Shown here one piece after another: positions 4,099-31,750 of a stretch of 64,000 nucleotides of DNA; the first letter of the stretch is position 1, and every line of letters starts with the position of its first letter. Below the pieces are notes generated by a model, which saw nothing but the letters and a program-made list of their open reading frames with translations, was not told the DNA's origin and did no database searches. The DNA is taken from NCBI GenBank assembly GCA_900169235.1, contig FWCC01000248.1, forward strand, positions 18,497 through 82,496. The letters run 5' to 3'. The position numbers and the translations under genes are program-made. The DNA comes from Zarea fungicola. Taxonomy: Eukaryota > Ascomycota > Sordariomycetes > Hypocreales > Cordycipitaceae.

Positions 4099-5362
4099 AA
4101 TGATTGAGTTGGAATAAATTTCTGATAAAAACTTGCTGATTTATAAAGTGAAATCACTCGAATTGTTAATCTTCTGCTTCACGGCAAGAGAGGGCAGTCC
4201 CTCGGCGGGTTTTATAGTTTGCTGGACGAGCAAAAGTTAAACCTAGCTTACACGTTTTCTCTCGGATTTTCGCCTGCGCAATGGGCAATGTTCACCACTG
4301 CTGGAGAATATAAATTAAAGTAACGTTGCCGAAAAGCAATCTAACCACGGCTATTTTACAAATGTGATGGTCGTCTGATCCGAATGATCAACTCCTGCTG
4401 CAGTTTTGCTGGTGCCAAGTATACCGAGATGCGCAGTTTAGGTGCAGGAGAATGCCTATTGGTGGAATTTCTTGATGGACGGCATTCACGCGACGACTTA
4501 TGTTGATCTCTTTATATGGTCAGGGTATTTAAGCTTAAAAGACTAAACAGCGGATGAATTTGCGTTAGAGTGCCAAGACGGCAATTCACTGTCGCTGCCA
4601 TAGGTCGAGTAGTTGGGATTTTGACAGCTAATCGGCACAGCAATGTTGAATTTTGTTCATCATGACACGGACGATTCTTGGGGTTGAGTAACAAGCGGGT
4701 TTGTGGCGCATTAATTTGAGGGCAGAGAGAGTCTTCCTCACATTACCAGGCTACTCCGCTGGTCAGCTGCGCTGTAACCAGTCAAACGATGGATGCAACA
4801 GTTTCGTCAATTCAACAAACCTCCTCTTATTATTGAGAGAGGGAAAGGCAGGCTTCGTGGGTTGGATCCAAGACGGAGTTGATATGGGTAGTGTTTCGGG
4901 TGATTGTTCACCGATGTAGACACGCATATGTATAGAATGAACAAAAACCAGCCTGTAGCGATCCAACGCGTGGCCGTCAGCTTTCAGCTTTGGCAATACT
5001 ATTCTGGCTGAGACAGTGGATTCGACCTATTTCGCCAGCGGTGTCTATACCCAATTACAAAATCTAGCGGCCGTCTCGGATTAAATTACTCCCTTTTTTG
5101 TTAAGATTTGACTAAATGGCTCTCAAGACTCGCTACTCCATATGTATGGCAATTTTACCAGATTCACCGTTTAATAGATTAAGTTAGTGCACTTGGTATC
5201 AACTAGGGTACGCCACCACCAGCTACCTACAACTGCTAAATTAATACGCCTTAATTATATTAATAAAAATATAAATAAATAGATAAAAACGAACTTTATA
5301 CATAAAGGAATTTACCTATATTATGTATTATATTATTATACCCTAAGCTAGGCTATGCCTAT
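4099..5362. other. Intergenic, no gene seen
   Basis: Promoter region of the lyase gene followed by about 1 kb without a credible coding region. From about 5050 to 5360 the sequence is strongly AT-rich with many TA steps, unlike the flanking genes, which suggests decayed repeat DNA. Confidence 0.5.
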
Positions 5363-5776
5363 TGTTACATGTAGGGGCCGCCGCTTGTTGCGGCCTCGAG
5401 GCCATAAATAACCGGCCTCAGGTCACTAGTGTTGCAAACGCAAAAAGGCTGAGGCGGCCCAGGAAGAGACTGGTGAGGGAGGTGAGCGGAGTGAGCAATA
5501 GCGATTCGATGAATATATTAACGAGCCGAAGGCCATAGCTAGTCTAGAGAGTTTAGATCNNTACTATTGAGAGCACAGTCTCTTGACGATACTTACTATT
5601 GCACTGTTCTATATAACCTGACTTGCTTCAGAGCATACCCCAACTGTGACTTACGTCGATTAAGCCATCGTTACAATTGGTTACGTGACCTCTCACTTTA
5701 GGCTTCTCGTAAGGCGCCCACGACCAAGTCTCCTTCCCGGGCCACGTTAGCCTTCCTGTATCATGCGTTCGTAACA
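5363..5776. mobile_element. Candidate solo LTR of a retrotransposon
   Basis: A 414-bp segment begins TGTTAC and ends GTAACA, a perfect 6-bp inverted terminal pair of the TG...CA type used by LTRs. It contains a TATA-like CTATATAAC around 5610, consistent with an LTR promoter, and it differs in composition from the AT-rich DNA next to it. Two ambiguous bases (NN at 5560-5561) lie inside, a sign that the assembler had trouble with a repeat here. The 5-bp flanks (CCTAT and CTGTA) do not match, so no target-site duplication supports the boundaries. No gag, pol or second LTR is visible nearby. Orientation unknown. Confidence 0.4.
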
Positions 5777-5913
5777 CTGTAAATGTTTGTTGCTAATAGG
5801 CCAAATATATAGGAAGAAAATCTGTTGAATTAGCAAATGTTAATTAAGGGCATCCTAGGTGGTATGGAACGTACTATGAATCCTTTGATGTATTAGAACT
5901 AATTTCCGTTTTG

Positions 5914-8762: not shown

Positions 8763-10370
8763 TATCGATGCTTATATAGAGTGGAAGTAAGAGTGAACAC
8801 AGGTAAAAGATATAAGGATAGTATATAGGTATATAAAAGATACCTAAATTATATTTATATTACATTCGTCATGTAAGGATAGGATTACTAGTAAATTGTA
8901 TGGGAGGAATAAAGCCTTTATATAGACGATTAGAAGACTACAATTCTGATGACTTCTGAGAAAACAGCTTTCGGAGCCTTCCGAAGCTGACAAGCAGCTA
9001 GGAAGTTACTGGGGTAAAAAGGACGTAGTTTATAACCAATTAAAGCCCTCCTAGCAATATCTCAGAGAAAACTATTCTATCTTGACCTATAGAGACTACG
9101 CTAAGGCAAGTAGTCCTAACTATGGACCTATCATAGTAGTATTTACTCTCCACTACAAAGTCCACTATATTATAAGTACAGCAAATATATAGAAGGCAAT
9201 AGCCTAATTATAAAGCCAGTAGTTTGCAGGGTTTACCGTCGGTTTAAATGCCGCGTGCCCACTTGGAAGGCTGGGGTTGGGTCTTCAGTCACAGCTTTTA
9301 TAAATTGCGAGCATGGAAATACATGGAGTGGTAAACGGTTACGAAATGCTTTCCCCCATTACCATTCGCCGTACGTTCGTGCTATCAAGTGGCATCTCGA
9401 CTGTAGTATGTTGTCGGCCAAAGAACTTGTTGGAAATCAGATTCCTGATGATTGGTTTTAGAGTAGCTACGCCACCAACTCTGCGGTTATATTGGAAATT
9501 TGTGTTCGCCTGTGCTTACTGTCATGCATAGCCACCTGCTGATTTTAGCCAGCCGACACGTAGTGGGGTACTGAAGACAAACTCGAGCGATTTTTGCCTT
9601 TGAGCTAGTCAGCCTGAGTTGGATAGATAGGGAAGTCAGACCAACAGCGCTAGAGGAGTGTGGAACCATGGGTACGGAAATACTCGGCCGTTTTTTTACG
9701 TGGCGAAACCTTCCCGTGCCGGATTTCTTCCTGCAGGACTTTTACTAGAATCCATATAATGGTAATTAGGTGTTGCGCCAAAATGAGCACATGCATGAGG
9801 TCTTGGTAAAGTATACCTCGTGAGCTGATAGGCGTTGTTGCTTGCTAGCTGCACGCATTGGTAGGTACAAGAGGCTCAGCGCTTGTAGTTACAGCTAAGA
9901 TCGAGTTCCACCTTGGATCGCAGGCGCTCAGCGCTGAAGGCTATCTTGCGGGCAATAGACAACTCAGAATACGATTGAAGTCAGTGGCGACCCTCGATAC
10001 GTCACCGTGCCCTGACATGAGTCAACTCCATGTCAGTTCTCGGCCTTGAAGACCGCTACGAATCAAATTCAATTCAGCATTTAGTACTAGAATCGTTAAC
10101 CATTTAATTTACCATTTCATTACTTCTAGTGGCTACGTCGCATGCCTTACACGATGTTCAGCTGGGATGAAGCAAATCATACCAAAAATTGCACTTTTTC
10201 TTGTGATCCAGCGGACAGTACATAGAGGTGAATATCTATATATGAGGTGTAAAACTGATTTCGTACCAACCCAGTACTAGCAATGGTTACAACACTGCTA
10301 GCGAACAAGGAGTGTAGCAAAACCCAAGAGTAGAGCTGAGCAGCGTGATGCTCTTTGCTGGGGCGACTTC
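8763..10370. other. AT-rich, TA-rich intergenic DNA (decayed repeat candidate), no gene
   Basis: From about 8800 to 9230 the sequence is dense in TATA/ATAG/CTAT strings and has no long ORF, the look of DNA that lost CpA through repeat-induced point mutation. From 9250 to 10370 the composition returns to normal but only short, featureless ORFs occur. Promoter of the cupin gene lies at the left edge. Confidence 0.4.
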
Positions 10371-12920: not shown

Positions 12921-13470
12921 ATAAAGCTGGACTATCATGACCAAGTCTTCAACAATACGTTGCTTCAGAGTAACATATACAGGCAGGATGCAGGGCCTGC
13001 TGTGGATGAAGCATGGCATCAACTTGGCGTGAATTGTCGGTATCCTTTACCGTTACCTCCAAAAGGTCAATCATGGCTAATTCACAGGCGAGATTCTTCT
13101 TTATAGGGAATAATATGACTATTAGCAGAGAACAAGGTCTCAAAACGAGCATTCCTCCCGGATCTGTTCGCGTCCAAGATGAGTACGGGGGCGGCTATAT
13201 GGGGATGCTGGAAGTATTTCATCAGCTGCATTGTTTGGTACGAATTGACGGAGGCTTTGACATTTTTCAGCGACCAAACTAACCCCATCATTTACATTCT
13301 AGAATCTGCTCCGGAAAGCTCTCGTATTCAACTATCAGTACTATCTCGACAAGGGCGAGGAGGAATTTTTTGACGGCGAAGCCATGGTCAAACTTCATGT
13401 CGGTGGCCGAGTACATCCCAGTCTGCTGGAGACATTTCCAGGACTCAGACAAGGCCCGCAGCGCCAGGCT
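12921..13470 (+). pseudogene. Remnant of a UstYa/DUF3328-family oxidase gene
   Basis: Three exon-like blocks carry the family's landmarks: 12921-13039 (NIYRQDAGPAVDEAWHQLGV), intron 13040-13128, 13129-13237 (GGGYMGMLEVFHQLHCL with the first HxxHC motif), intron 13238-13302, and from 13303 NLLRKALVFNYQYYLDKGEE. The second HxxHC block, expected around 13390-13430, is destroyed: pieces of it (EYIPVC, QSAGDIS) survive only in two different frames, so at least two indels have occurred. The N-terminal membrane anchor exon is not visible upstream. UstYa proteins are oxidases that build ether or C-C macrocycles in dikaritin RiPPs. Same strand as, and just upstream of, the GST-like gene. Confidence 0.65.
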
Positions 13471-13794
13471 GCAGATGCGCGGAGTGTTGCATGAGGCGAA
13501 AATCAGGCCTCCAACGCTGCATAGCAGAGAATTGTGAATGTAAGAGGAATGATGATGAGGCGGCAGTGGAGTCGCTGCAGCTGTGAGGGCAAGCCAGAGC
13601 CTGATTTCGTGTGTAGTGGACCGGAGAGGCGCACAGGACCGAGAACTTCCCCCGCTCTCGACACTGGACAAAGGAGACGCAAAATACTTCAAGCTTCTGG
13701 CATCATTGGCCAATTCACCTTTCCGTACTTGCAGTTCTTCGTCGCCAAGAACACGAACACGTGAGCATTTGACGACCCGGGGAGCTCGCGAAAC

Positions 13795-14843
13795 ATGGCT
13801 TCAGAGCAATTCAATACCGCCGCCGAGGGCCAACAGGCCACCGACGACTACTGCCTTTATATTTTCCCATTTTCAATCTATTCCATCATGGCGCGTGCAA
13901 CGCTAGCCTTTGGCCAAGCAGCAGCAGTCTCGGCTACAGCCAAGGCCTTGAGCGTCGGCTTGAAGCTGGTCAACCTCCACCGAGAAGAAAACATCTCGGA
14001 AACATACCTCATTAAAATCAGTGCCAAAGGCCAGGTACGCTTGATTTCCCAATCTCGTATACCCCAATATACGAGAGACTCTCTTGACAAAATCTAAACC
14101 GTCGCTCTAGGTCCCAGCTCTGACGGGTGGTGCTCTTTCGTCCCCTCTCACCGACAGCTTGGACATTTCCGTCTTCTTCTGCCAGCATTACCCAGGTCTT
14201 CTACCAGAGAAGCAGACACCCTTCATAAAACAGCTTCTACAGCAACTCCATCAGATCCAAATGCTTTCACTCTCTGTGCCGTCCAAGGAAGATCGCGCCG
14301 AGGGCGTGCCGTGTCCGACCGTTGACGCCCTGCTGGCCGGCACAGAAATCAGCCCGAAATACCGAGACGCTCTGCAAAACAAGCGAAAGTAGTAAGTTTT
14401 ACCGTAACACCATTTTCTGACACAATGCGCCGCTCATTTGTGAGAATGTACTGACCGTTGCTCTTCTCTTCCCTTTCTTTCGCCCTAGCCATAAAGAAAC
14501 GCAGGAAAACGCTCTAACCGACGACAATGTTCATTTGGCAGAGAATCAAGCTAAAGCTTTACTTGCCGAAGTTGACAAAATCATATCCACTGCTGCTGAC
14601 AAGGCAGGCGCACTGCCAGAATGGATCTTTGGCGAAGCCGTTGGCCCGACAGTTCTTGATGCTCACTGCACCGCTTTCATTGCCCGGCTCATGGACTGTG
14701 GAAGACATGATCTTGTACCCGATCGGCTTCAGAAGTATGCTTGTTCTGTCATGACTAGCCCGGGCTGGCAATCTGTAACCCACGGGCGCTCGACCATGTG
14801 GGACGTCTCTGTTGGGCATGTTCACCTCCTTAAGGACCTTTAG
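13795..14843 (+). CDS. Glutathione S-transferase-like protein, UstS-like
   Basis: Exons 13795-14034, 14111-14391 and 14489-14843 splice in phase to 291 aa. The N-terminal thioredoxin-like half shows LYIFPFSIYSIMARATLAFG, LKLVNLHREENISETYL and the cis-Pro turn GQVPALTGG that spans the first splice junction. A helical C-terminal half follows. This is the layout of cytosolic GSTs. A GST-like protein (UstS) is part of the ustiloxin cluster, and this gene lies between a UstYa remnant and the precursor gene, so a role in the same pathway is likely (conjugation, isomerisation or protection). The gene is convergent with the precursor gene; the stops are 179 bp apart. Confidence 0.78.
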
Positions 14844-15022
14844 CAGCATGCATTTCTTTTACTTCAGTAGCCTTCACATATTTCATGGATAGGGTAGTTA
14901 TGAAATTCACATGTTGAATTTAAGATGGTTAAATTTAGCTACTTCACATTTTCGTCTGTGATCAAACGAGCTGTTATTGTCTTGTCTTGTTGCTGACCCT
15001 GGCATAGCATGCCGCTGCCTAT

Positions 15023-15331
15023 TTACTCTTCATTTTCATGAACATCACGATCGGCCATATAGCTCTTGTACACGGAAGGGCGCTTCTCCTCGGGGACAGA
15101 TCGATCAGCCATATAACTCTTGTACACGGAGGAACGCTTCTCCTCTGGAACGGAACGATCAGCCATGTAGCTCTTATACACTGAAGAGCGCTCAGTCTAA
15201 TTTTATCAAGTCAGAATTCGTCATTTCGGTAGTTTATATCCTTGGCAGCACTGGAGAGCAAGACATACAAGCGGCAGAGCTAGTGCACTGCTCACGGCAA
15301 CGAGGCTAGCGACAACGGAGAAGACTTTCAT
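15023..15331 (-). CDS. Dikaritin-type RiPP precursor peptide with three core repeats
   Basis: Exon 1 is 15269-15331 and exon 2 is 15023-15196; the intron 15197-15268 (GTATGT...AAATTAG) is in phase 0. The product is 78 aa. Residues 1-19 are a classic signal peptide (MKVFSVVASLVAVSSALAL). The rest is three tandem units. Units 1 and 2 are identical, SSVYKSYMADRSVPEEKR, each ending in a Lys-Arg Kex2 site. Unit 3 starts PSVYKSYMADR and ends in an acidic tail DVHENEE. The ten residues SVYKSYMADR are invariant in all three. Signal peptide plus Kex2-bordered repeats with Tyr-containing cores beside a UstYa gene defines UstA-like precursors. The gene is divergent from the UstYa gene (335 bp shared upstream region). 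Cores with this sequence are not known to me. Confidence 0.85.
15070..15187 (-). repeat. 54-bp tandem repeat units encoding the RiPP cores
   Basis: Three direct repeats of about 54 bp in exon 2 of the precursor gene; the third is partial and diverges after the core. Units 1 and 2 differ at ten codons, all synonymous. Units 2 and 3 differ over the eleven core codons at three synonymous positions and one Ser/Pro change. Confidence 0.8.
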
Positions 15332-15666
15332 TTTGTTATGACGCGATTCTGCAACCCGGTGTTTTTGCAGTTTATTGCTTAACAATGTACAAAAGAAAAG
15401 CCAGCTTGCCAACTGCCGCATAAATATCCACAGAATTATAGCGGGAATAGCCTTGCCCGGCAGTCACCGAACGGCCTCCAGCGGCTGATTCTATCATCTA
15501 AGGCCACCAGCAAAGGCGCGAGCGTTCTGAACCTTTCACATTTGTATCCGTCCCAAAAGAAATTGCCCCAATGAGTTACCCTTTGTATTTTTTATTGATT
15601 TATTTCTTTTGTTTGAAGCCCTTCCAAGGGAAAAAGCATAGACTACTATTTACAGAGCAGACAGCG
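15332..15666. promoter_or_regulatory. Shared divergent upstream region of precursor and UstYa genes
   Basis: 335 bp separate the start codons of the precursor gene (minus) and the UstYa-like gene (plus). Divergent genes with a short common spacer are usually co-regulated, here plausibly by the Zn2Cys6 factor encoded at 17.8 kb. No binding site could be assigned with confidence. Confidence 0.4.
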
Positions 15667-16519
15667 ATGCCGGCCGAGGACAAGCCCATTGGTGGTCGTC
15701 TATGGCATGATGACCTGGAGAACCAAAGTCATGGCATGAATGAGTCGGATTACGAACCATTTCTCGCAAAGCAGGCAACACCGGTGGCAAACAAAAATTG
15801 GTGGGCGCGCAGTGCCTACTTCTACATACTGGATGTTTTCTTGATAGCTATCGCTATTCTTGCTTTCTTCTCTCGGCCAAGGCATCATCAACAACAAGGC
15901 GACGCCACAGGCTACGTGCCAGCCTTTGGAAGTCACCTTGTGGTTTTTGAGAACCATCCCGAGTTTATGTCCAATCACTCCTCTGAAGCTTCGTTGATAG
16001 AGGCTCGAGAGTCTTGGAAGACACTCGTTCCACGTAAGACACCCCAAAGAATACTTTCAAGCGATAAATGAAAGAAGTATTGATCAGCTAACGGATACTG
16101 CTCGCAGCGGGCCAGGGGTTCCTTGACATTTCGCCAAGCGCAGCTCAGCAGTTCAACTTTCCAAAGCTGATTGACTACACTTTGCCGGCAAAATCTAGCG
16201 TCACAGGCAAAGATCGACACGGGAAATCGCTAGGAACCTCCGTTGTTCACTCTCTGCATTGCTTGGTTTGTGCCCCGTCCCCCGAAGCCCCCAGACCGTT
16301 CGCTTTTGCTGATTGTCACTCGCCCAAATTCAGTATACCATCATGGCGGAATATGACTTGCTCGCCCAGGGACAAAAGCCGTACAGTCAGGGACATATGG
16401 ACCACTGCTTTGACTACATCAGGCAGGCCATCATGTGCGGCGGGGACATGGCTCTCGCTGGCGAGACATTTCCAGGAGGCAGTTCGCAGTTTGGTGTGGC
16501 GCATGTCTGTAAAGACTGA
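15667..16519 (+). CDS. UstYa/DUF3328-family oxidase of the RiPP locus, C-terminally truncated by a stop
   Basis: Exons 15667-16033, 16108-16265 and 16334-16519 splice in phase to 236 aa. An earlier ATG at 15571 is less likely because the start at 15667 gives the family's cytosolic tail followed by one membrane helix (YFYILDVFLIAIAILAFF). Both signature motifs are present: HSLHC at the end of exon 2 and HMDHCFDYIRQAIMC in exon 3. The reading frame ends at TGA 16517-16519 right after GVAHVCKD. Past that codon the frame continues for 29 more codons (DQIYEYLDKNRV ... FVPPT) to TAA 16607-16609, and this extension has the normal family tail. One G-to-A change of TGG would explain the stop. The catalytic motifs are upstream, so activity may survive. 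Role: oxidative cyclisation of the core peptide in the secretory pathway. Confidence 0.82.
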
Positions 16520-16609
16520 GATCAGATTTATGAGTATCTAGACAAGAACCGCGTGAGCACTGAGTGGCAGTTTGGAGATGCGCCGACACACTTTGTACCC
16601 CCGACATAA

Positions 16610-17799
16610 AAACAGGCTCAAACAGCACACAATCAGGTTCAACTATATACCAGTGGCTCGTTGAATAGGCCTCTTGAACCACTCTATTATACTTTGGCTC
16701 GTGAAGTCCAATGCAGATTGAATGATTCGAGTATCGAGAGTGCAGATACAGAAACAGCCGGCGCGCCCAGTTTGCCGAAACGGGCTGACAAAGTCGACAG
16801 AGTCGACTTCCTTATTTTTAACTGTGGTCCAGGCGAGACACACCGAACTGTTTTCAGCTTCGGCTATATAGTAAAAACGTTATTCCCTCAACTATTGCAG
16901 CTTAAATTTACCACTTGGGAGTAACTGCGCCCACCAAAATAACGACAGATGGCCCTGACAGCAGCGTGCAAGTAGCTGGCAACAAGTTGCAGTCGAGTAT
17001 ACGGTCAAGCAAAACTGTGAGTAGATGGAAACTTTTCAATAATGAACCGCAGGGCTGCAGTAGCTCGTGTTCCTCTTCGAATTTTTAAAGTCGGCTGCGT
17101 TGCTTTAAACCCCAGTTATATTCCGCCAGGCTGCGTGCGGTATCCTCAACACCATGTCAGCCACACTCCGAGACGGCATTTTGCCTTATAATGAGCCTTG
17201 CTGCATGGACGCCTTTCACAGGCTCCAATTGGATGATTGGACGTAGGCACATCCATGTATTGAGAGGCCACTGTCGCACGTCGATGGCGGTGGCTCTTGC
17301 CTCTGACGGCATGTAAGAGCCTCCGCAATTGATCCGCATGCGAGGCAGACCAGGAACGCTTAAGGAGATGGAGGTAGGAGATAACATCGGACATACCGCT
17401 TTTTCGTGGGAATAAGCAATGCATGTCTTGGCCGGCAGTCACGATATATTAGACTGACTACGCACGACCCATTTCAATGGTTGGTTAACTTGTTTTTATT
17501 TCCATTGGTCGAGACTCTAGCCAGCACAAGGCTGACTAAATCGCAGTCGTTGCCAAATGTAACGCGTGTAGTTGCGGCTGAGCAAGAATTAACACTGCCA
17601 CAAATTGACTTGCGCCATGGACTCGTAGTGGAAATAAAACTACGTCAGTGCCAACCAAGCTAATAAGTAAGTAACTGACTTGGTTCCTGTATCCCGCAAG
17701 TCACGGCGATCGAATATTTCTCCTTGGATAAAAGCTCTTCTTCGCGGATCTTGGCCGCGTTTCATCACTGAGAATTGTATGCTTTTTCTTCCACAGCAA
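16610..17799. other. Intergenic, no gene recognised
   Basis: About 1.2 kb between the UstYa-like gene and the C6 factor. It contains only short ORFs (longest about 98 codons at 17146-17442, minus) without signal peptide, domain or splice support. The right edge should carry the promoter of the Zn2Cys6 gene. Confidence 0.4.
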
Positions 17800-19506
17800 A
17801 TGCCAAGCGACGCTTCAAAGGCATGCTGGGAATGTGTTAAGAATCGTCGCGTATGCGACTTTTCCCGGCCGTTATGTGGCAAGTGCAAAATGCGAGGCAT
17901 CATCTGCCCAGGATATGGTCAGAAACCACTCAAATGGCTTCAGCCAGGCCAGACAGGATCAAAGGGTCGCCATGCAAACCGCGCGGCTGCATTGGTTGTT
18001 CCAGACAGAGAGCCGCATATGCTCTGTCGGAGTATACAGGCCCCAGGTATTGCGCCGCTAGAGGCCGCCGTGTATTGTAAGATCTTAACATTTTGAAATC
18101 CCCCCGCGGCATGTCTCTCAAGGGTGGCATATCCCTAATTTATCCATTTTAGATAACTCGGTGATTTGTCCAGATCTGGAGGCACTTGGAATTGCTAGCG
18201 AGCGCAGCCTGTTTTTCGTAAAACTGGACATGATAGCCAACATGCCGCAAGCTTTCATCGAAACCATGGCTTGCACCACACTGGGACATCGCCTCTTGCA
18301 ATATGAGCATGATGTTTCGTCAAAGGACTCGATGGTTATTGGTCATCGGCTGCAGCGACATCGTGGCAATGCCATAAGATGTCTCGCGGAATTGATAGCA
18401 AATCCGGCGTCTCAATACAAAGACAAGACCCTCGTCTCGACAATTACATTCCTCCTGTCAGAAGTAAGCCCTACATTCTCGCTATTCTCGTTGCCTTTTT
18501 TTTTCATCACTAAACGCCTAGCCAGATTCAACAATCCATCTCACCTACTTGGAGCGATCATAGCGACGGAGCCCACGTACTGATGAACGCACAAGGTGGC
18601 ATGAGGAAGGTTTTAACATCACGGCCACACATGCTTCATTTGTTTCGATATTTTATTATGCAAGTTGCCCTGTTACCGTTACGCAATCTGACGCTAATAT
18701 GATGAAACAGAATTGACATATTCGGAGCGGCAACTACGCCAAATCTATCTTTAGAAAGGACATGTCGCCAAATGGCCATCATTGACTTATTGGAACCAAT
18801 CTTCGGCAGCGGCCTTGCGACGTCTATACCTTGCGATCACAAATTGTTGCGGTTGCTAGTTCTTATCAATCACCAACGTGCACGTAACTTGGTCGAGTGC
18901 CAAGGAGCTGAAGATGCATTCAGCTCCATGTTGGAAATTTTAGATCAAATAACAGCCTTTTCCGTTACGGACTGGGTACGCGATGTGTCGATCGCCCAAA
19001 GAGAATACATCGAAGGTGGAATTGATTACGCAGGAGAGGCAGGAGGGCCGTGGAAGACATGGAACTGGACCCCTGTTGGAAATGCATATCAGGCCGCAAT
19101 TTCACTCTACTGCATTTATTCTCTCTCAAATGTTGACGAGGTTGCCAAAGAGGGGGACAAAATATCCTGTGCGCGCCTTTCGGAGATTCAGCTCCAGATT
19201 GAGTCATGTCGCAGTTCATTGCTCAGCAATTTGACGCAACTAGTCACCGACCCTGTTCCCCAGTTGCGGAAGCTGGTATTCTGGCCAGTCTTCATAGCGG
19301 GAATCATTAGCAAAGAAGATGAAGACGGTACTCGCAACTTTGTCAGAAGCGAACTGTTGTACATTAGTCGCGTTCTGGGCACGGCAGCGGCATTGGTGGC
19401 CCGCGACTTTCTGGATACCAAGTGGCAATCCATCGAGCCAGCAAACTCTCAGACCTGGAACAGTTGGGATCATCTGTTTGATCGACCGTACATTTTCGCA
19501 GTATGA
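17800..19506 (+). CDS. Zn2Cys6 transcription factor, likely regulator of the RiPP locus
   Basis: Exons 17800-18076, 18153-18463, 18526-18671 and 18711-19506 splice in phase to 509 aa; the last intron is only 39 bp but has GT, a GCTAAT branch-like site and CAG. Residues about 8-35 are a Zn2Cys6 binuclear cluster: CWECVKNRRVC, FSRPLCGKC, GIICPG give six Cys in CX2CX6CX5-8CX2CX6C spacing, with basic residues between. The remaining about 430 residues are helical and match the fungal-specific regulatory half of this superfamily (MNAQGGMRKVL, LLVLINHQRARNLVECQGA). Such factors are commonly cluster-specific activators; ustiloxin-type clusters include one (UstR). Its position at the edge of the locus supports that role. 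Confidence 0.8.
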
Positions 19507-19938
19507 CGACTTGGCCAAACTGTGATACTCTAGATCCATAATCAAGTACACCCACCTATAGACTTTTTCGAAAAAAAATATATATTACTGTCGATATTAC
19601 AACTTTCGATGGTAACAAAAGTATTCTTTTAGTACCCGTACCACCTGGAGTTGACGTAGGCTGTGCAGAAGTAAATCTGCCATGCACTATAGAAAGAAGT
19701 AAAGCCACACTTAGAACTACATTTGCCCGACTCTGGAATTACTTGACATAGTTTTGAGAGACAACCTAACAATCCAATCTTGCATTCTTCTGAATGTCGT
19801 TTAGGCTAGCAGGTCTATATGCTAAGTTTCAAGCGCTGTTCTGGTGTTCGCGCAGCATGTTCACTTTGGTCACAAGATGACTGAAAAAAAAAGGCATTTA
19901 AAAATTTGCATGGTCGCCCTCACTGAATACTATTGCCC
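19507..19938. other. Intergenic between two convergent genes
   Basis: 432 bp holding the 3' ends of the C6 factor gene (plus) and the effector-like gene (minus). AT-rich, with short A runs near 19575 and 19890 that fit polyadenylation regions. No ORF of note. Confidence 0.5.
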
Positions 19939-20817
19939 TTACTTGCTGAACAGCTTATCGAAAGAGGCCGAGTCCATCTGGCCTTGAAACGCACGACTAC
20001 CCGTTGTAGTCGTCATGCTACCAAACTTTTGATTCACACCCTGCTTTGCATTACCGACGATTCCTTGCATAGCAATCGATTGATTATCTGTATTCATGTC
20101 ACCAAACTTTTGCTCGGTTCGCTGAGCGCAAGTTGCCAACAGCGTCTTCTGGCAGACTTCGTGAAGGCTAATAGTCAGCCCTGCATCAAGGTCACCAGCA
20201 GTGCTCCGGTCATCAGTTGGCGATTCTGTCTCTCTGCTAGAAAGCTGGGCCCCCAAGTCCACCAAAGCTTGCTCCTGAGTAGCAAACTGGGTCTGCAGTC
20301 TCCCCATCTCCCCTGAGGTGCGACTGGAAACTATCCTATTGTTCTGTTAGAGACTTATCCATTTGAGCGAGACAAACACATACAATGTGATTGAAGAGAG
20401 TACCATGGTCATCGTTCTCTGGCATGCTGCTAGATCCGTGTTTAATTTTTTGATTCGTGGCTCGTTTAGTAGTATCAAAAATCTATCGCGCCTGCTAAAA
20501 TGTGATTCGGTCGAATGACTGCTGTAAGTTCTCAAAGCAGCCGCAAACTTTTGGAGAAACATATCCGTGCAGTCTAACGCCTTACGGAGTTCTATTGATT
20601 TAAGGATAGAGTCTATCGTCTCAGGAGCAGAGTTATCCTTAAGTGTTTCCGTGAGTGTGCCTATCGCTGTCTGTGCTTGGGAGACGAGGCTCTTGCTGTA
20701 AATTATAGAACTCGGCGCATCCTTGACACCATCAATGACGGTGTAAAGTGTTCTGGCGCTTTGCAATGCCGCAGTTGCCACCGCTATTACACTAGCAGTG
20801 ATACTGAGGGGATCCAT
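19939..20817 (-). CDS. HET-S-like effector candidate: helical N-terminal domain plus two amyloid-type pseudo-repeats
   Basis: Exons 20384-20817 and 19939-20335, intron 20336-20383, in phase, 276 aa. Residues about 1-150 (MDPLSITASVIAVATAALQS ... LNTDLAACQRTMTMVLSSITL) match the fungal N-terminal helical domain found on STAND proteins (Pfam 'Fungal N-terminal domain of STAND proteins', akin to HeLo/HELL-type bundles). The C terminus has two ungapped pseudo-repeats at about residues 220-240 and 247-267: QKFGDMNTDNQSIAMQG and QKFGSMTTTTGSRAFQG, each followed by four residues, with a 6-residue linker. Two 21-residue repeats at the C terminus is the architecture of HET-s-related amyloid motifs (HRAM). 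The divergent NLR gene begins with a matching single motif. Expected role: membrane-targeting cell-death executor. The helical-domain call is from family recall. Confidence 0.75.
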
Positions 20818-21030
20818 GGCTGGTCGAGCTATTTTGTCGTATTCCTAAACGCTCAATTGCAAAGGGCACTTGATGCTCGGCGCCTACACAACTAACCCCG
20901 CCCGGCACTCATGTTTCATGTCCTGCAGCTTCACGTGATATCCTGAGGCGTTCTCGTGAGGACTTCGATCCTGGCAGCCGCTGGGTCGCCGCCCACGATC
21001 CCAGTCCACATTCAAGATTTCATTGTAATA
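20818..21030. promoter_or_regulatory. Shared divergent upstream region of the effector/NLR pair
   Basis: 213 bp between the start codons of the two-repeat effector gene (minus) and the NLR gene (plus). A bidirectional promoter is implied. No specific element was identified. Confidence 0.4.
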
Positions 21031-23940
21031 ATGGAGAGGCCGAGCATTGAACAGCACTTTGGCGACGCCGAGATTTCTAGCGGCGGCTTTTTGTTCCAGG
21101 GCTACGTTAGTGGACCTCTTCATATCCACAGTAAGGCAATAGGTATCTCCTTTTACGCTACTAAAGTGCTCGTGAACTGACAGTAATGCAATGCAGACGA
21201 GACACAAGCAAAGCGTGCTCATGTGCAGCGGATAATTCCCTTCCCTCGAAACGAGAGTGCTGTAGATCGCAATCACTTCAATAGTCTCGACGAACTGCTT
21301 CCCCCATCCGATGTCTCTCAGAGTGCAGCTCTCTGGGGCCTTGGCGGCTCCGGGTACGTTTTCTTCGTACGATTTTAGACTGCATGTACTGACCACGAAT
21401 AAAGTAAAACGCAAATCGCCCTTGAGTATGCGTACCGGCGGGCCAGTGACCCTGCCTGCTCAGTCTTTTGGGTCCATGCAGACAACGAGACGGCCTTCTT
21501 ACAGGACTACAAGCTGATTGCGGATAGACTGAGCATCACGGGCTTGGACGGATCAGAGTTGATGATGTCCGTGCGCAGGCGAATCGAAGAAAATCCATGT
21601 TGGCTGCTCGTTCTTGACAATGCGGACGACCTAGCCGCATTCGGAGTAGGTCTGAGGCAGTCGGAAGCAGAACCAAAACAGAGTCTGTACGATTTTGTGC
21701 CACGAGGTCCTGGTGGAACACTGCTATGGACAAGCCGCGATAGGAGAATTGGCGGCAGCCTCGTCAGCACCAAACAGGCCATTAATGTCACTTGTATGAC
21801 AGACGGAGAAGCGAGGATGTTACTCGAAATGGTCATGGGTAAAGGGGTTGGTAAGGAATTGCAGACTGTGCTCGATCTTCTCATCGAGCTGGATTATCTT
21901 CCGCTTGCCGTCTCCCAAGCTGCTGCCTACATACGAAGGACGTCAACTTCAATCCCAAAATATCTACTAAAATTAAGGGAGAGAAAGCAAAGATGGGATG
22001 TACTCTTCAAGACAGAATTCGATCGACATCGTCGAAATCATGTGGCCAATGATGCTCTACGGACATGGGATATCTCGATTGAGCAGATAGGGCAGGAGAG
22101 CCGGATGGCCTATAATATTCTTCACATGCTCTCGTTTCTTGATAATCAGAACATCCCGGTTGAGCTTATTGCGAAGGGGGCAGAGTTGATGCGCAGTGCC
22201 GATGATTCTTTAAGCGTTGTCCCCACCTGCAGTACGCAAGAGCGGCCAGAGGAAGATAAAGATGCTGTGCGGACAGCGATTGTTCTTTTGCAGGACTTTT
22301 CCTTTCTACGTGTTCGAGCGTTAGATGGACTAGATGACGCCTATGAGATGCACAAGTTTGTGCAAGAGGCGACGCAATACAGCTTGAGCCAACCAGCAAG
22401 ACGGAAGGACGAAGAACATTTCTCAGGGGTAGCCCTCCGGGCTGTCGCAGATCTCTTCCCGGAGACAATACGAGAACATTGGCAGGAGTGCGAGAAATAT
22501 CTCGCACATGTGAAGAGTGCAGCTAAATGGGCCCCTCTTTGTGCTGGTGAAGTAGCGGCCGCGTCACTTTTGACAGTGGTGTCGAATTATCTTGGTGACC
22601 ATGGGAGGTGGCGAGAAAAGGAACCTGTGGATGAAACTGCCTATGAATATCGGGTACGAACTCTAGGTGTGCAGCATTCTGATACACTCGAGAGTATGGC
22701 GTTACTTGCAGGGACATACCATTCAAAGGGAAAGTATGACCTGGCAGAGAAGATGAAGTTGGATGTGCTTGCACGGCGACGCGAAGTTCTTGGAGACCAG
22801 CATCCCAACACGCTCGAGAGCGTAGCGTCACTTGCAGAGACGTACCATTCGCAGGTTAGATATGATGAAGCGGAGAAGATGCAAGTGGACATACTTGCAA
22901 GGCGGCGCGAACTTATTGGAGACCAGCACCCTGATACGATTACAAGCATGGCTTCATTAGCTACAACGTACTATAGCCAGGAGAGATATGTTATGGCAGA
23001 GAAGCTAGAGGAACATGTTATTCGATTGCGTTGTGATGTTCTTGGAAAGAAGCATCCTCAAACAATTGTCAGCATGGCTTCATTACCTATCACTCACTAC
23101 ATACAAGGGAAGTTTAAAAGTGCAGAAAAAATGCTAATGGATGTGCTTGAGCTACAGCGTGAGGTTCTTGGAGAAGGGCACATTTTTACAATCTCGAGTA
23201 TGGGATCCCTAGCTTCGACTTACTATGGCCAGGGCAGGTTTGACGAAGCAGAGAAGATGGCAGACAGTGTGCTTGCTCTACGGCGTAAAGCCCTAGGGGA
23301 GAAACATCCCCAAACTATAATGACTATGTCGTTATTGGGCAGAATCTATTATGCTCAGAAGAGATATGATATCGCAGAGAAAATGGTAGCAGATGCGCTT
23401 ACTCTACGGCAGGAAGTTCTACCAAAGAATCATTTTTATACAATCCGCGGCATGGAATACCTGGCCGCGATTCACCATACACAGGGGAGATATGACGAGG
23501 CGGAGAGGATGCAGGTAGATGTTTTACAACTCGACCGAGAAATCCTCGGACCGAAGAACCTTTGGACTATTAGAAGTACTGCATCACTGGCAAGAACATA
23601 CTCGAGCCTGGGGAGGTACGATGTGGCGGAAAAGATGCAGGCGGATGTGCTTGATCTCAAGCGCGAAGTTCTTGGGAACAAGCACCGTGAAACTACCTTT
23701 GCTATGCAGAATCTCGCCGTCACATGGTGGAATAGTCGCCAGCGACCTCGTGACGCAGTCTCATTAATGCGGGAATGTTATTACGTACAGCGCGAGGTTT
23801 TAGGGGAAGAGCACCCCACCACGAAGGTATCATTACAGACGTTGGCTCAATGGGGGAAGGCGGATAGGAACGCAGACTTCAGCATCAGCAGAGCATTCAC
23901 AAGTTTGGCTCACCATGTTAAGGCCAGGTTGCCCTGGTGA
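21031..23940 (+). CDS. STAND/NLR protein: N-terminal amyloid-type motif, NB-ARC domain, TPR repeats
   Basis: Proposed exons 21031-21130, 21197-21353 and 21405-23940 join in phase to 930 aa. The first splice (acceptor ATGCAG at 21191-21196) is the least certain part. Residues 8-24 are QHFGDAEISSGGFLFQG, aligning without gaps to the C-terminal repeats of the divergent neighbour. NB-ARC follows: GLGGSGKT (Walker A, split by intron 2), WLLVLDNADD (Walker B), TLLWTSRDRRIG and DYLPLAVSQAAAYI (GLPL-like). From about residue 510 to the end run nine to ten TPR units of 42 residues of the fungal HPxT...GRYDEAEKM...RREVLG type, as in kinesin-light-chain-like sensors. Expected role: ligand-gated NTPase switch in non-self recognition or programmed cell death. 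Confidence 0.85.
22660..23880 (+). repeat. 126-bp (42-aa) TPR repeat array
   Basis: Nine to ten tandem units starting at HSDTLES, HPNTLES, HPDTITS, HPQTIVS, HIFTISS, HPQTIMT, HFYTIRG, NLWTIRS, HRETTFA and HPTTKVS. The pattern A-x-x-Y-x-x-G-(K/R)-Y/F-(D)-x-A-E-K-M is conserved. Units have diverged at amino-acid level, so this is not a very recent expansion. Confidence 0.8.
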
Positions 23941-30087: not shown

Positions 30088-31750
30088 ATGAATAAACTCC
30101 ACTCCGACGACATCGAGAAACGTGCAGGCGTTCTGCAGCCAACAAAGCAGGTCGACACCAGCTCTGGCGCCGAGTCCCACGATGAAACTGAAGTTATTCC
30201 CATGACTAAGCTTCAGACGGTTATGTCGAAGCTCAAGGTGGAAACAAGAGGTATCGAACGTGTTCCAGATGACGAAAGAACGGACACGTCGTACCTCAAC
30301 ATCGGGTCCATGGTATTTTCTCCCTCTGTTGACAAGGCGACAGCCGTCTGACCATGTGCAACTATCATAGTGGGTTGCCGCCAACATGGTGGTTCCCTCC
30401 TTCACCATCGGGGTGCTAGGGAAGCCACTATTTGGTGTTGGCTTTGTTGATTCTGTCCTGGTGATTATCTTTTTCAACCTGATTGGCAGCGCCACTGTCT
30501 GCTTCTTCTCCATGTTTGGCGCGGCCTTTGGTTTACGACAGATGACGCTGTCTCGCTTCTGGTTTGGCTGGTGGGGTGTCAAAATAAGTAAATACATGTC
30601 CAAGAAGTGTTTTATTAGTATCAAACTGGCTAACATGCATACAGTTGCCATCTTCAACATTCTGGCCAGTGTAGGTTGGGCGGCTGCCAACATCATTGTC
30701 GGCGCTCAGCTTATACACGCCGTGAACAACGACATTCCTGGCTATGCAGGTATCCTAATTATTGCGTTCTGTACACTTATTATTGTGTTCTTTGGATACA
30801 AGGTCGTACATGCCTATGAATTTTGGAGCTGGATGCCAACATTCGTCATCTTTCTCGTCGTCCTCGGTGTCTTTGCCCACTCAGGTGATTTTGTCAACAC
30901 CCCGATGAATAGTGGCAAGAGAGAACTGGGTGCAATCCTGTCGTACGGCTCTACAGTATTTGGTTTTGGTACAGGCTACACTCCGTTTGCTGCTGACTAC
31001 ACCGTGTATCAGCCAAGCAACCGACCGCGCCGAAACATCTTCCTCGCCACTTGGCTTGGTATATACCCTACTTTACTCTTCACCGAGATCCTTGGCGCTG
31101 CAGTTGTGACTGCCACTGCCCTGAATGGAGGCGACAATATCTATCAGCGTGGGTATGACGATGCCGGAATCGGTGGGCTATTGGGCGCCGTCTTGTTTGA
31201 GAAGCTCGGTGGGTTCGGGAAATTTTGTGTCGTGATTCTCGCTCTCTCCATCGTGGCCAATAACTGTCCAAACATTTACTCCGTCTCGCTAAATCTGATG
31301 GTTCTCGGTCGCTGGACACGGCATATCCCGCGCTTTCTTTGGTCGACTCTTGCAACTGCTGTCTACATTGCCATTGCTATTCCAGGATATGGGGCCTTTG
31401 AGTCTACTTTGGAGAATTTCATGAACTTGATTGCTTACTGGTTGGCAATCTACGAAGGCATCGTCCTTTCAGACCACTTCATCTTCAAACGTGGCTTTTC
31501 TGGCTACCGTCCTGAGGACTACGAAGACCGGACCAAACAGCCACTTGGAATTGCCGCGATTCTCGCCTTCTGTTTTGGTGTCATGGGCATGGTGCTGGGC
31601 ATGAGCCAATCATGGTGGGAAGGCCCGATCGCGAAGCATGCAGGTACGCCGCCATTCGGTGGCGACGTGGGGTTTGAGTGCGCCTTTGCTTTCGCGACTG
31701 TTTCATACATCATTATGCGCACAATCGAGCTCAAATATGTTGGACGTTGA
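30088..31750 (+). CDS. NCS1-family purine/cytosine permease
   Basis: Exons 30088-30312, 30371-30587 and 30645-31750 give 515 aa with about twelve membrane helices and a hydrophilic N-terminal tail of about 70 residues. Family landmarks: WVAANMVVPSFTIGVLG (helix 1), FGAAFGLRQMTLSRFWFGWWG, GTGYTPFAADYTVYQP, NCPNIYSVSLNLM and YEGIVLSDHFIFKRG. These match the Fcy2-type cytosine/purine transporters of the nucleobase:cation symporter-1 family (for example yeast Fcy2 and Aspergillus FcyB). Plasma membrane, H+ symport of cytosine, adenine, guanine or hypoxanthine, or a vitamin-type substrate. The second intron is 57 bp and open in frame, so intron retention would insert 19 residues without breaking the protein. 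Confidence 0.9.

What the first reader, a model, noticed from the sequence alone, without database searches (positions are those of the whole stretch)
12921..19506. Compact dikaritin-type RiPP locus with an unfamiliar core (SVYKSYMADR)
Seen: a 78-aa precursor with signal peptide and three Kex2-bordered repeats, a divergent UstYa-family gene with both HxxHC motifs, a GST-like gene, a second UstYa remnant and a Zn2Cys6 regulator, all within 6.6 kb. Known: UstYa oxidases cyclise Tyr-containing cores of UstA-type precursors in ustiloxin, phomopsin, asperipin and epichloecyclin pathways. Inference: the locus makes, or once made, a cyclic peptide from a core containing two Tyr (VYKSYM). No tyrosinase, P450, methyltransferase or peptidase gene is visible here, so the pathway would be minimal or split. 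The core does not match any dikaritin core I can recall.
Basis: partly seen in the sequence, partly recalled or inferred. Interest (0 to 1): 0.92.

Follow-up and report, generated by a model that had tools for sequence, protein, structure and literature searches.

The report
Fungal repeat-peptide precursor beside truncated cyclase
A fungal genome encodes a 78-residue, predicted secreted protein built from three near-identical repeats that lies head to head with a gene of the copper-oxidase family that likely ties such peptides into rings, so it is probably one more fungal ribosomal cyclic peptide of a known kind, although the enzyme gene carries an early stop and a second copy is a remnant.

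Summary
A two-exon minus-strand gene (15331..15023) encodes 78 aa with a signal-like start and three SVYKSYMADR repeats. Repeats 1 and 2 differ by 10 synonymous and no amino-acid changes, as a selected peptide would. The one homologue found is a two-repeat hypothetical protein of Akanthomyces lecanii. Head to head, 335 bp away, lies a UstYa/DUF3328 gene with both HxxHC motifs. In this genome 6 of 16 other UstYa neighbourhoods read hold Lys-Arg-separated repeat arrays, and 0 of 7 control regions do, so the pairing is a recurrent, known kind. Corrections: there are two Lys-Arg sites only; an in-frame stop removes from the two-motif UstYa gene a tail kept by the 4 relatives and 10 genomic copies compared; only position ties the GST-like gene to the pathway; and no protein named Akanthomyces came up for the UstYa or GST-like gene, though A. 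lecanii keeps the precursor. Best reading: a small, asperipin-like UstYa RiPP locus with a new core, probably decaying; cyclisation is inferred, not shown. Moderate to low interest.

The parts
15023..15331 (-). Kex2-type repeat precursor, 78 aa; exon 1 15269-15331, exon 2 15023-15196 (GT-AG intron 15197-15268); signal-like N-terminus, three SVYKSYMADR repeats, two KR sites
   Evidence: homologue P0001
15332..15666 (.). 335-bp interval between the divergent starts of precursor and UstYa-B
   Evidence: no supported shared motif
15667..16519 (+). UstYa-B (DUF3328): exons 15667-16032, 16108-16264, 16334-16519; 236 aa, one hydrophobic transmembrane-like stretch (residues 50-68), HSLHC and HMDHC motifs; ends at an in-frame TGA before the conserved C-terminal tail
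16520..16608 (+). open, relative-like continuation of the UstYa-B frame behind the stop, up to TAA
12903..13240 (+). UstYa-A remnant: two pieces matching UstYa profile 54-90 and 94-137, first HxxHC only; the frame downstream (13303-13488) matches no family
13795..14843 (+). GST-like protein, 291 aa, three exons, apparently intact; tied to the locus by position only
17800..19506 (+). Zn2Cys6 / Fungal_trans_2 regulator, 505 aa, four exons (last intron GC-AG)

Best explanation
This is likely a small UstYa-type RiPP locus whose 78-aa repeat precursor would be cut by the Kex2 protease into a peptide around SSVYKSYMADRSVPEE, whose tyrosines the neighbouring copper-oxidase-family UstYa-B protein is predicted to cross-link into a ring, and the locus is probably decaying because that enzyme gene stops early. 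Shown: the precursor frame and repeats, the synonymous-only divergence of two repeats, the head-to-head UstYa gene with both HxxHC motifs, the in-frame stop, the remnant second UstYa, and KR-separated repeat arrays beside several other UstYa genes of this genome. Inferred: secretion, Kex2 cutting at the two KR sites, oxidation at Tyr, regulation by the Zn2Cys6 protein, and loss or weakening of activity through the missing tail. The closest working model is asperipin-2a, whose cluster holds one UstYa homologue and no tyrosinase.
For: Precursor model and selection pattern; independent annotation of the same protein in A. lecanii with one repeat fewer; UstYa-B over the Pfam cut-off, 64.1 bits against 25; KR-separated arrays at 6 of 16 other UstYa neighbourhoods read against 0 of 7 control regions and 0 of 20 further loci; survey in which 1758 of 7878 Kex2 repeat proteins have a DUF3328 gene among the 15 closest, at an average distance of 3.09 genes, and 65.6% of their repeats contain Tyr against 38.2% without one (PMC7329392, abstract, part of Results, sections 7 and 9); DUF3328 enzymes as copper enzymes in which the HxxHC pair is essential (PMC12435403, abstract and passages); asperipin cluster of four genes with one UstYa homologue and core FYYTGY (PMC6514808, passages).
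Against: UstYa-B lacks a tail present in 4 of 4 relatives aligned and in 10 of the 10 other UstYa genes of this genome whose end could be read, so the enzyme may be dead. A. lecanii has the precursor, yet the searches with UstYa-B and the GST-like protein returned 5 proteins (one of them the window itself, one unnamed at 33%) and 31 proteins (9 unnamed, at most 48% identical), none named Akanthomyces; this argues against a conserved pair, though a gene missed by that annotation would not show. 10 of the 16 UstYa neighbourhoods read had no array in the 3-8 kb seen. No tyrosinase on this contig, and no P450 or methyltransferase in the frames scanned. No transcripts and no compound.
Confidence: 0.6

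Rival explanations
1. The precursor yields a linear secreted peptide (hormone, pheromone-like signal or small effector) by Kex2 cutting alone, and the UstYa genes beside it belong to something else or are relics.
For: Most Kex2 repeat proteins have no DUF3328 neighbour (6120 of 7878; PMC7329392, section 7); A. lecanii keeps the precursor while no protein named Akanthomyces came up for UstYa-B or the GST-like protein; both UstYa copies are damaged.
Against: UstYa-B starts 335 bp away head to head; 35 UstYa neighbourhoods in 43.1 Mb put an arbitrary gene within 5 kb of one only about 1% of the time (grouping and estimate by hand); two Tyr in the core; 6 of 16 other UstYa neighbourhoods read here hold repeat arrays.
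Confidence: 0.25
2. A dead locus: it once made a cyclic peptide and now makes none, the precursor being the last intact part of the pathway proper.
For: UstYa-A remnant and stop in UstYa-B.
Against: Precursor, GST-like and regulator frames are intact, repeats look selected, no second lesion was seen in the UstYa-B exons or the frame behind the stop, and both motifs and the cysteines at 210 and 234 remain. Some 34 other UstYa neighbourhoods could supply a substitute enzyme (grouped by hand).
Confidence: 0.12
3. Not a peptide precursor: a chance tandem repeat in an open frame.
For: Only one homologue found.
Against: Synonymous-only divergence of repeats 1 and 2; signal-like N-terminus identical at 19 of 21 positions with A. 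lecanii.
Confidence: 0.03

Closest known systems
Asperipin-2a locus (aprA, aprY, aprR, aprT), Aspergillus flavus
   Same: small cluster, one UstYa homologue with a Tyr-rich core, no tyrosinase listed (PMC6514808, passages)
   Different: core FYYTGY against YKSYM; no aprR or aprT counterpart recognised beside the precursor; UstYa-B truncated; GST-like and Zn2Cys6 genes instead
Ustiloxin and phomopsin loci (dikaritins sensu stricto)
   Same: signal peptide, KR-separated repeats, UstYa family, zinc-finger regulator (PMC6514808, passages)
   Different: no tyrosinase on this contig, no methyltransferase or S41 peptidase recognised; no YxIx core; at most one motif-complete UstYa gene
Epichloecyclins (GigA)
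   Same: repeat precursor with Kex2 sites and a ring through Tyr described (PMC9233826, passages)
   Different: different cyclic product (Ile to Tyr in nonapeptides); GigA sequence was not compared here
Kex2-processed repeat proteins (KEPs) as surveyed in 1461 fungal strains
   Same: fits the general description; a DUF3328 gene next door as for 22% of KEPs (PMC7329392)
   Different: core not in the text of any held paper; whether it is in that survey's supplementary tables could not be looked up (no look-ups allowed)
Akanthomyces lecanii RCEF 1005 LEL_10201 (P0001)
   Same: signal 19 of 21 identical, first repeat unit SSVYKSYMADRSVPEEKR identical
   Different: two repeats instead of three; annotated only as hypothetical; neighbours unknown

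Membership tests
Kex2-processed repeat protein (KEP) | ER signal peptide | tested here: inconclusive
   hydrophobic N-terminus MKVFSVVASLVAVSSALALPL, mean hydropathy 1.9 over residues 2-21; no signal-peptide program on hand
Kex2-processed repeat protein (KEP) | repeats separated by Kex2 sites | tested here: met
   three repeats, two KR between them
Dikaritin, five-gene definition (Ding et al., as told in PMC12048977, passages) | precursor with leader and repeated cores | tested here: met
Dikaritin, five-gene definition (as above) | tyrosinase gene in the cluster | tested here: not met
   none of the 9 tyrosinase matches of the genome is on this contig
Dikaritin, five-gene definition (as above) | multiple DUF3328 proteins | tested here: inconclusive
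   one motif-complete but truncated gene and one remnant
Dikaritin, five-gene definition (as above) | methyltransferase | tested here: inconclusive
   none among 31 window frames and 2 spliced proteins scanned; this is part of the window's frames, and introns or short frames could hide one
Dikaritin, five-gene definition (as above) | transporter or peptidase in the cluster | tested here: inconclusive
   nearest transporter frame recognised is a purine/cytosine permease at 30371, 11 kb past the regulator; no peptidase over its cut-off in the same scans
Dikaritin, later definition (DUF3328 as class-defining enzyme; two HxxHC motifs as marker, as told in PMC12048977) | DUF3328 protein with two HxxHC | tested here: met
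   HSLHC and HMDHC, 64.1 bits; but the C-terminal tail is cut
Dikaritin, later definition (as above) | side-chain macrocycle in the product | not testable with these tools
   needs LC-MS
UstYa (PF11807) | profile match over the curated cut-off | tested here: met
   64.1 bits against 25, profile 7-209 of 220
UstYa (PF11807) | conserved C-terminal tail (seen here, not a published definition) | tested here: not met
   cut by the stop; present in 4 of 4 relatives and 10 of 10 readable copies; relative P0003 reaches profile position 220

The most novel reading that the evidence does not exclude
A naturally short UstYa copper oxidase without the usual C-terminal tail still cross-links the two tyrosines of a YKSYM core, giving a single-enzyme fungal macrocyclase system with a new ring (Tyr to Tyr, i to i+3), perhaps with the GST-like protein as a tailoring partner.
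Probability: 0.07. Interest if true: 0.6.

Novelty: new member of a known kind. Interest (0 to 1): 0.35.

Why it matters
It adds a core (SVYKSYMADR) that I found in no held paper to the catalogue of UstYa-linked fungal peptides and gives exact masses to look for. With a precursor kept in another species while the enzyme beside it is cut, it could show how such loci are lost, or whether the peptide has a use without its ring. Six of the 16 other UstYa neighbourhoods read in this genome also hold repeat arrays, so it is one of several of its kind.

Tried and rejected
Shared regulator site: CCGGCAGTCAC occurs in both the precursor/UstYa-B interval and upstream of the regulator, but 104 of 1000 shuffled pairs share an 11-mer or longer and the genome holds 17 copies against 29 of the reversed control word; rejected.

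GST-like gene as a RiPP tailoring gene: its four clear other loci in the genome (C348, C208, C297, C196; a fifth weak match on C131 at E 0.04 was dropped) have no listed UstYa match within 50 kb, L035 around one of them has no repeat array, and no held paper contains UstYa, glutathione S-transferase and precursor peptide together; kept as a neighbour only.

Fold of UstYa: the model of relative P0003 has mean pLDDT 47.5, too poor to place the tail; no solved structure matches UstYa-B by sequence at E of 10 or better. A short intron that would skip the UstYa-B stop can be drawn by eye, but it would drop a conserved cysteine; not computed, and RNA-seq would have to tell. The species of the window was not identified. 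A paper search for LEL_10201 found nothing; one on Akanthomyces, Lecanicillium, RiPP and gene clusters found 20 papers (15 listed), of which I looked at passages of one (PMC13123250), and these do not mention this locus. PMC6339444 (abstract, passages), PMC7099791 (abstract) and PMC12186524 (two passages) gave background only.
Full report
What is there. The window is G000:C360:18497-82496 of a 43.1-Mb assembly in 456 contigs. Between 12.9 and 19.5 kb lie, in order: a UstYa remnant (+), a GST-like gene (+), the repeat precursor (-), a UstYa gene (+) and a Zn2Cys6 regulator (+). The precursor has two exons (15331..15269 and 15196..15023). Of the acceptors tried only the one at 15197 gives the full 78-aa frame MKVFSVVASLVAVSSALALPL-TER-SSVYKSYMADRSVPEEKR-SSVYKSYMADRSVPEEKR-PSVYKSYMADRDVHENEE; one other gives a near-identical 76-aa frame and the rest shorter or unrelated ones.

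Is it real. Repeats 1 and 2 differ at 10 nucleotides, all synonymous; the first 11 codons of repeat 3 differ from the others by 3 to 4 synonymous changes and one amino acid, Ser to Pro just after the KR. About a quarter of random changes would be synonymous. So the peptide sequence was kept while the DNA drifted, which a chance repeat or a fresh duplication would not give; gene conversion would have levelled the synonymous sites too. Among 5.8 billion proteins one homologue came up at E of 1 or better (of 15 candidates): P0001, A. lecanii RCEF 1005 LEL_10201, 60 aa with two repeats, the same signal (19 of 21) and an identical first unit. It reads on across the same exon junction, which supports the splice model as an independent annotation, not as a transcript.

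The enzyme beside it. UstYa-B starts 335 bp from the precursor start, head to head. Its 236 aa hold one transmembrane-like stretch and the HSLHC and HMDHC motifs; Pfam UstYa 64.1 bits against a cut-off of 25. Of 5 hits one is the window itself; the others are from Dendryphion nanum (50%), Trichodelitschia bisporula (53%), Tricladium varicosporioides (45%) and an unnamed source (33%). All 4 continue past the point where UstYa-B stops, as do 10 of 10 other UstYa genes of this genome in which the second motif and what follows could be read in one frame; other loci gave no such reading, and L039, L041 and L046, where only the first motif showed in that form, were left out. Behind the stop the window frame stays open and relative-like for 29 codons. 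So the gene is cut once, in its conserved tail. The copper ligands known from the family (HxxHC pair essential in CctR, PMC12435403, abstract and passages) and two further cysteines (210 and 234) are still there. Whether the short protein works is open. UstYa-A is only pieces: profile positions 54-90 (under the cut-off) and 94-137, no second motif.

Is the pairing meaningful. One search lists 55 UstYa exon matches, which I group by hand into 35 neighbourhoods including this one. I read 16 of the other 34 (18 loci, 93.7 kb; 3-8 kb each) with a script for KR-separated repeats: 6 of 16 have an array and 10 have none in the stretch seen. The six are L005 and L038 (three similar units in a row), L040 (ten) and L003, L041 and L045 (two in a row by the script). 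A signal-like start was visible in L038 only; the others were not modelled. Of 7 control regions (49 kb: L035 by a GST-like paralogue, L036 left of the window, and L047-L051 chosen on contigs with UstYa genes but away from them) none has an array, nor do 20 further loci fetched for other reasons (63 kb, some overlapping). The script also flagged a TPR gene and one chance frame elsewhere in the window, and two off-frame readings in L038, which I dropped on sight. The published survey gives 1758 of 7878 KEPs with a DUF3328 gene nearby (PMC7329392). So a precursor beside UstYa is what this genome, and fungi at large, commonly do: a known kind.

Evidence against a working five-gene cluster. The search takes only proteins of 0.55 to 1.75 times the query's length, so a badly modelled or unannotated gene would be missed. 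The GST-like protein's relatives are in Pestalotiopsis (56%), Diaporthe, Trichoderma, Aspergillus and others; it belongs to a broad family whose fold is GST (relative P0007, pLDDT 87.8; best match 2v6k, probability 1.00, TM 0.56 by query length, rmsd 7.7), and its four other clear loci here are not near listed UstYa matches. No tyrosinase match lies on this contig. Family scans of 31 window frames and 2 spliced proteins (part of the 114 frames of 110 aa or more, plus short pieces) show a lipase, an alginate lyase, a weak cupin, a PigL-type N-terminus, a TPR protein, a GH79 C-terminal domain, a permease, a Na/H exchanger, a sugar transporter, an aldo/keto reductase, an actin-like and a UFD1-like protein, but no P450 or methyltransferase.

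Mechanism. By analogy with ustiloxin, phomopsin and asperipin, the precursor would enter the ER, be cut at KR in the Golgi and trimmed, giving SSVYKSYMADRSVPEE cleanly from the middle repeat and flanked versions from the first and last. UstYa-B, predicted to be lumenal and copper-dependent like its family, would oxidise Tyr side chains. The asperipin cluster has one UstYa homologue and no tyrosinase (PMC6514808, passages). None of these steps was tested here.

Verdict. Observation confirmed with corrections; interpretation partly supported; new member of a known kind with an unreported core and signs of decay.

Noticed in passing
L038 (G000:C157:116873-123872), minus strand near 4911: Precursor-like array with signal-like start and HKYSVSAKEADA units between KR sites, beside a UstYa gene and a short tyrosinase match at the contig end: a better candidate for a classical dikaritin cluster than the one in the window.
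   Followed up: partly
L040 (G000:C163:49501-56500), plus strand near 5831: About ten repeats of AENAAANPDYIAYGAKR type near a UstYa gene.
   Followed up: no
L003 (C230), L005 (C167), L041 (C191), L045 (C85): Further KR-separated repeat arrays (units such as TVKQNGDILYNNGAGWG, EFLNILDKKDEDDKWSTTGNAERNV, YTPVKYFGEAARRDE, KFGDISTLIETSY) beside UstYa genes.
   Followed up: no
G000:C43:18-25 kb: UstYa match at 18.5 kb and the genome's best tyrosinase match at 24.6 kb; no repeat array found in 14501-22500 (L037).
   Followed up: partly
window 5200-5500 and 8800-9300: AT-rich stretches near a two-base assembly gap at about 5560, perhaps decayed repeats, left of the locus.
   Followed up: no
window 18660-18710: The regulator was read as one frame with a GC-AG intron.
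   Followed up: no
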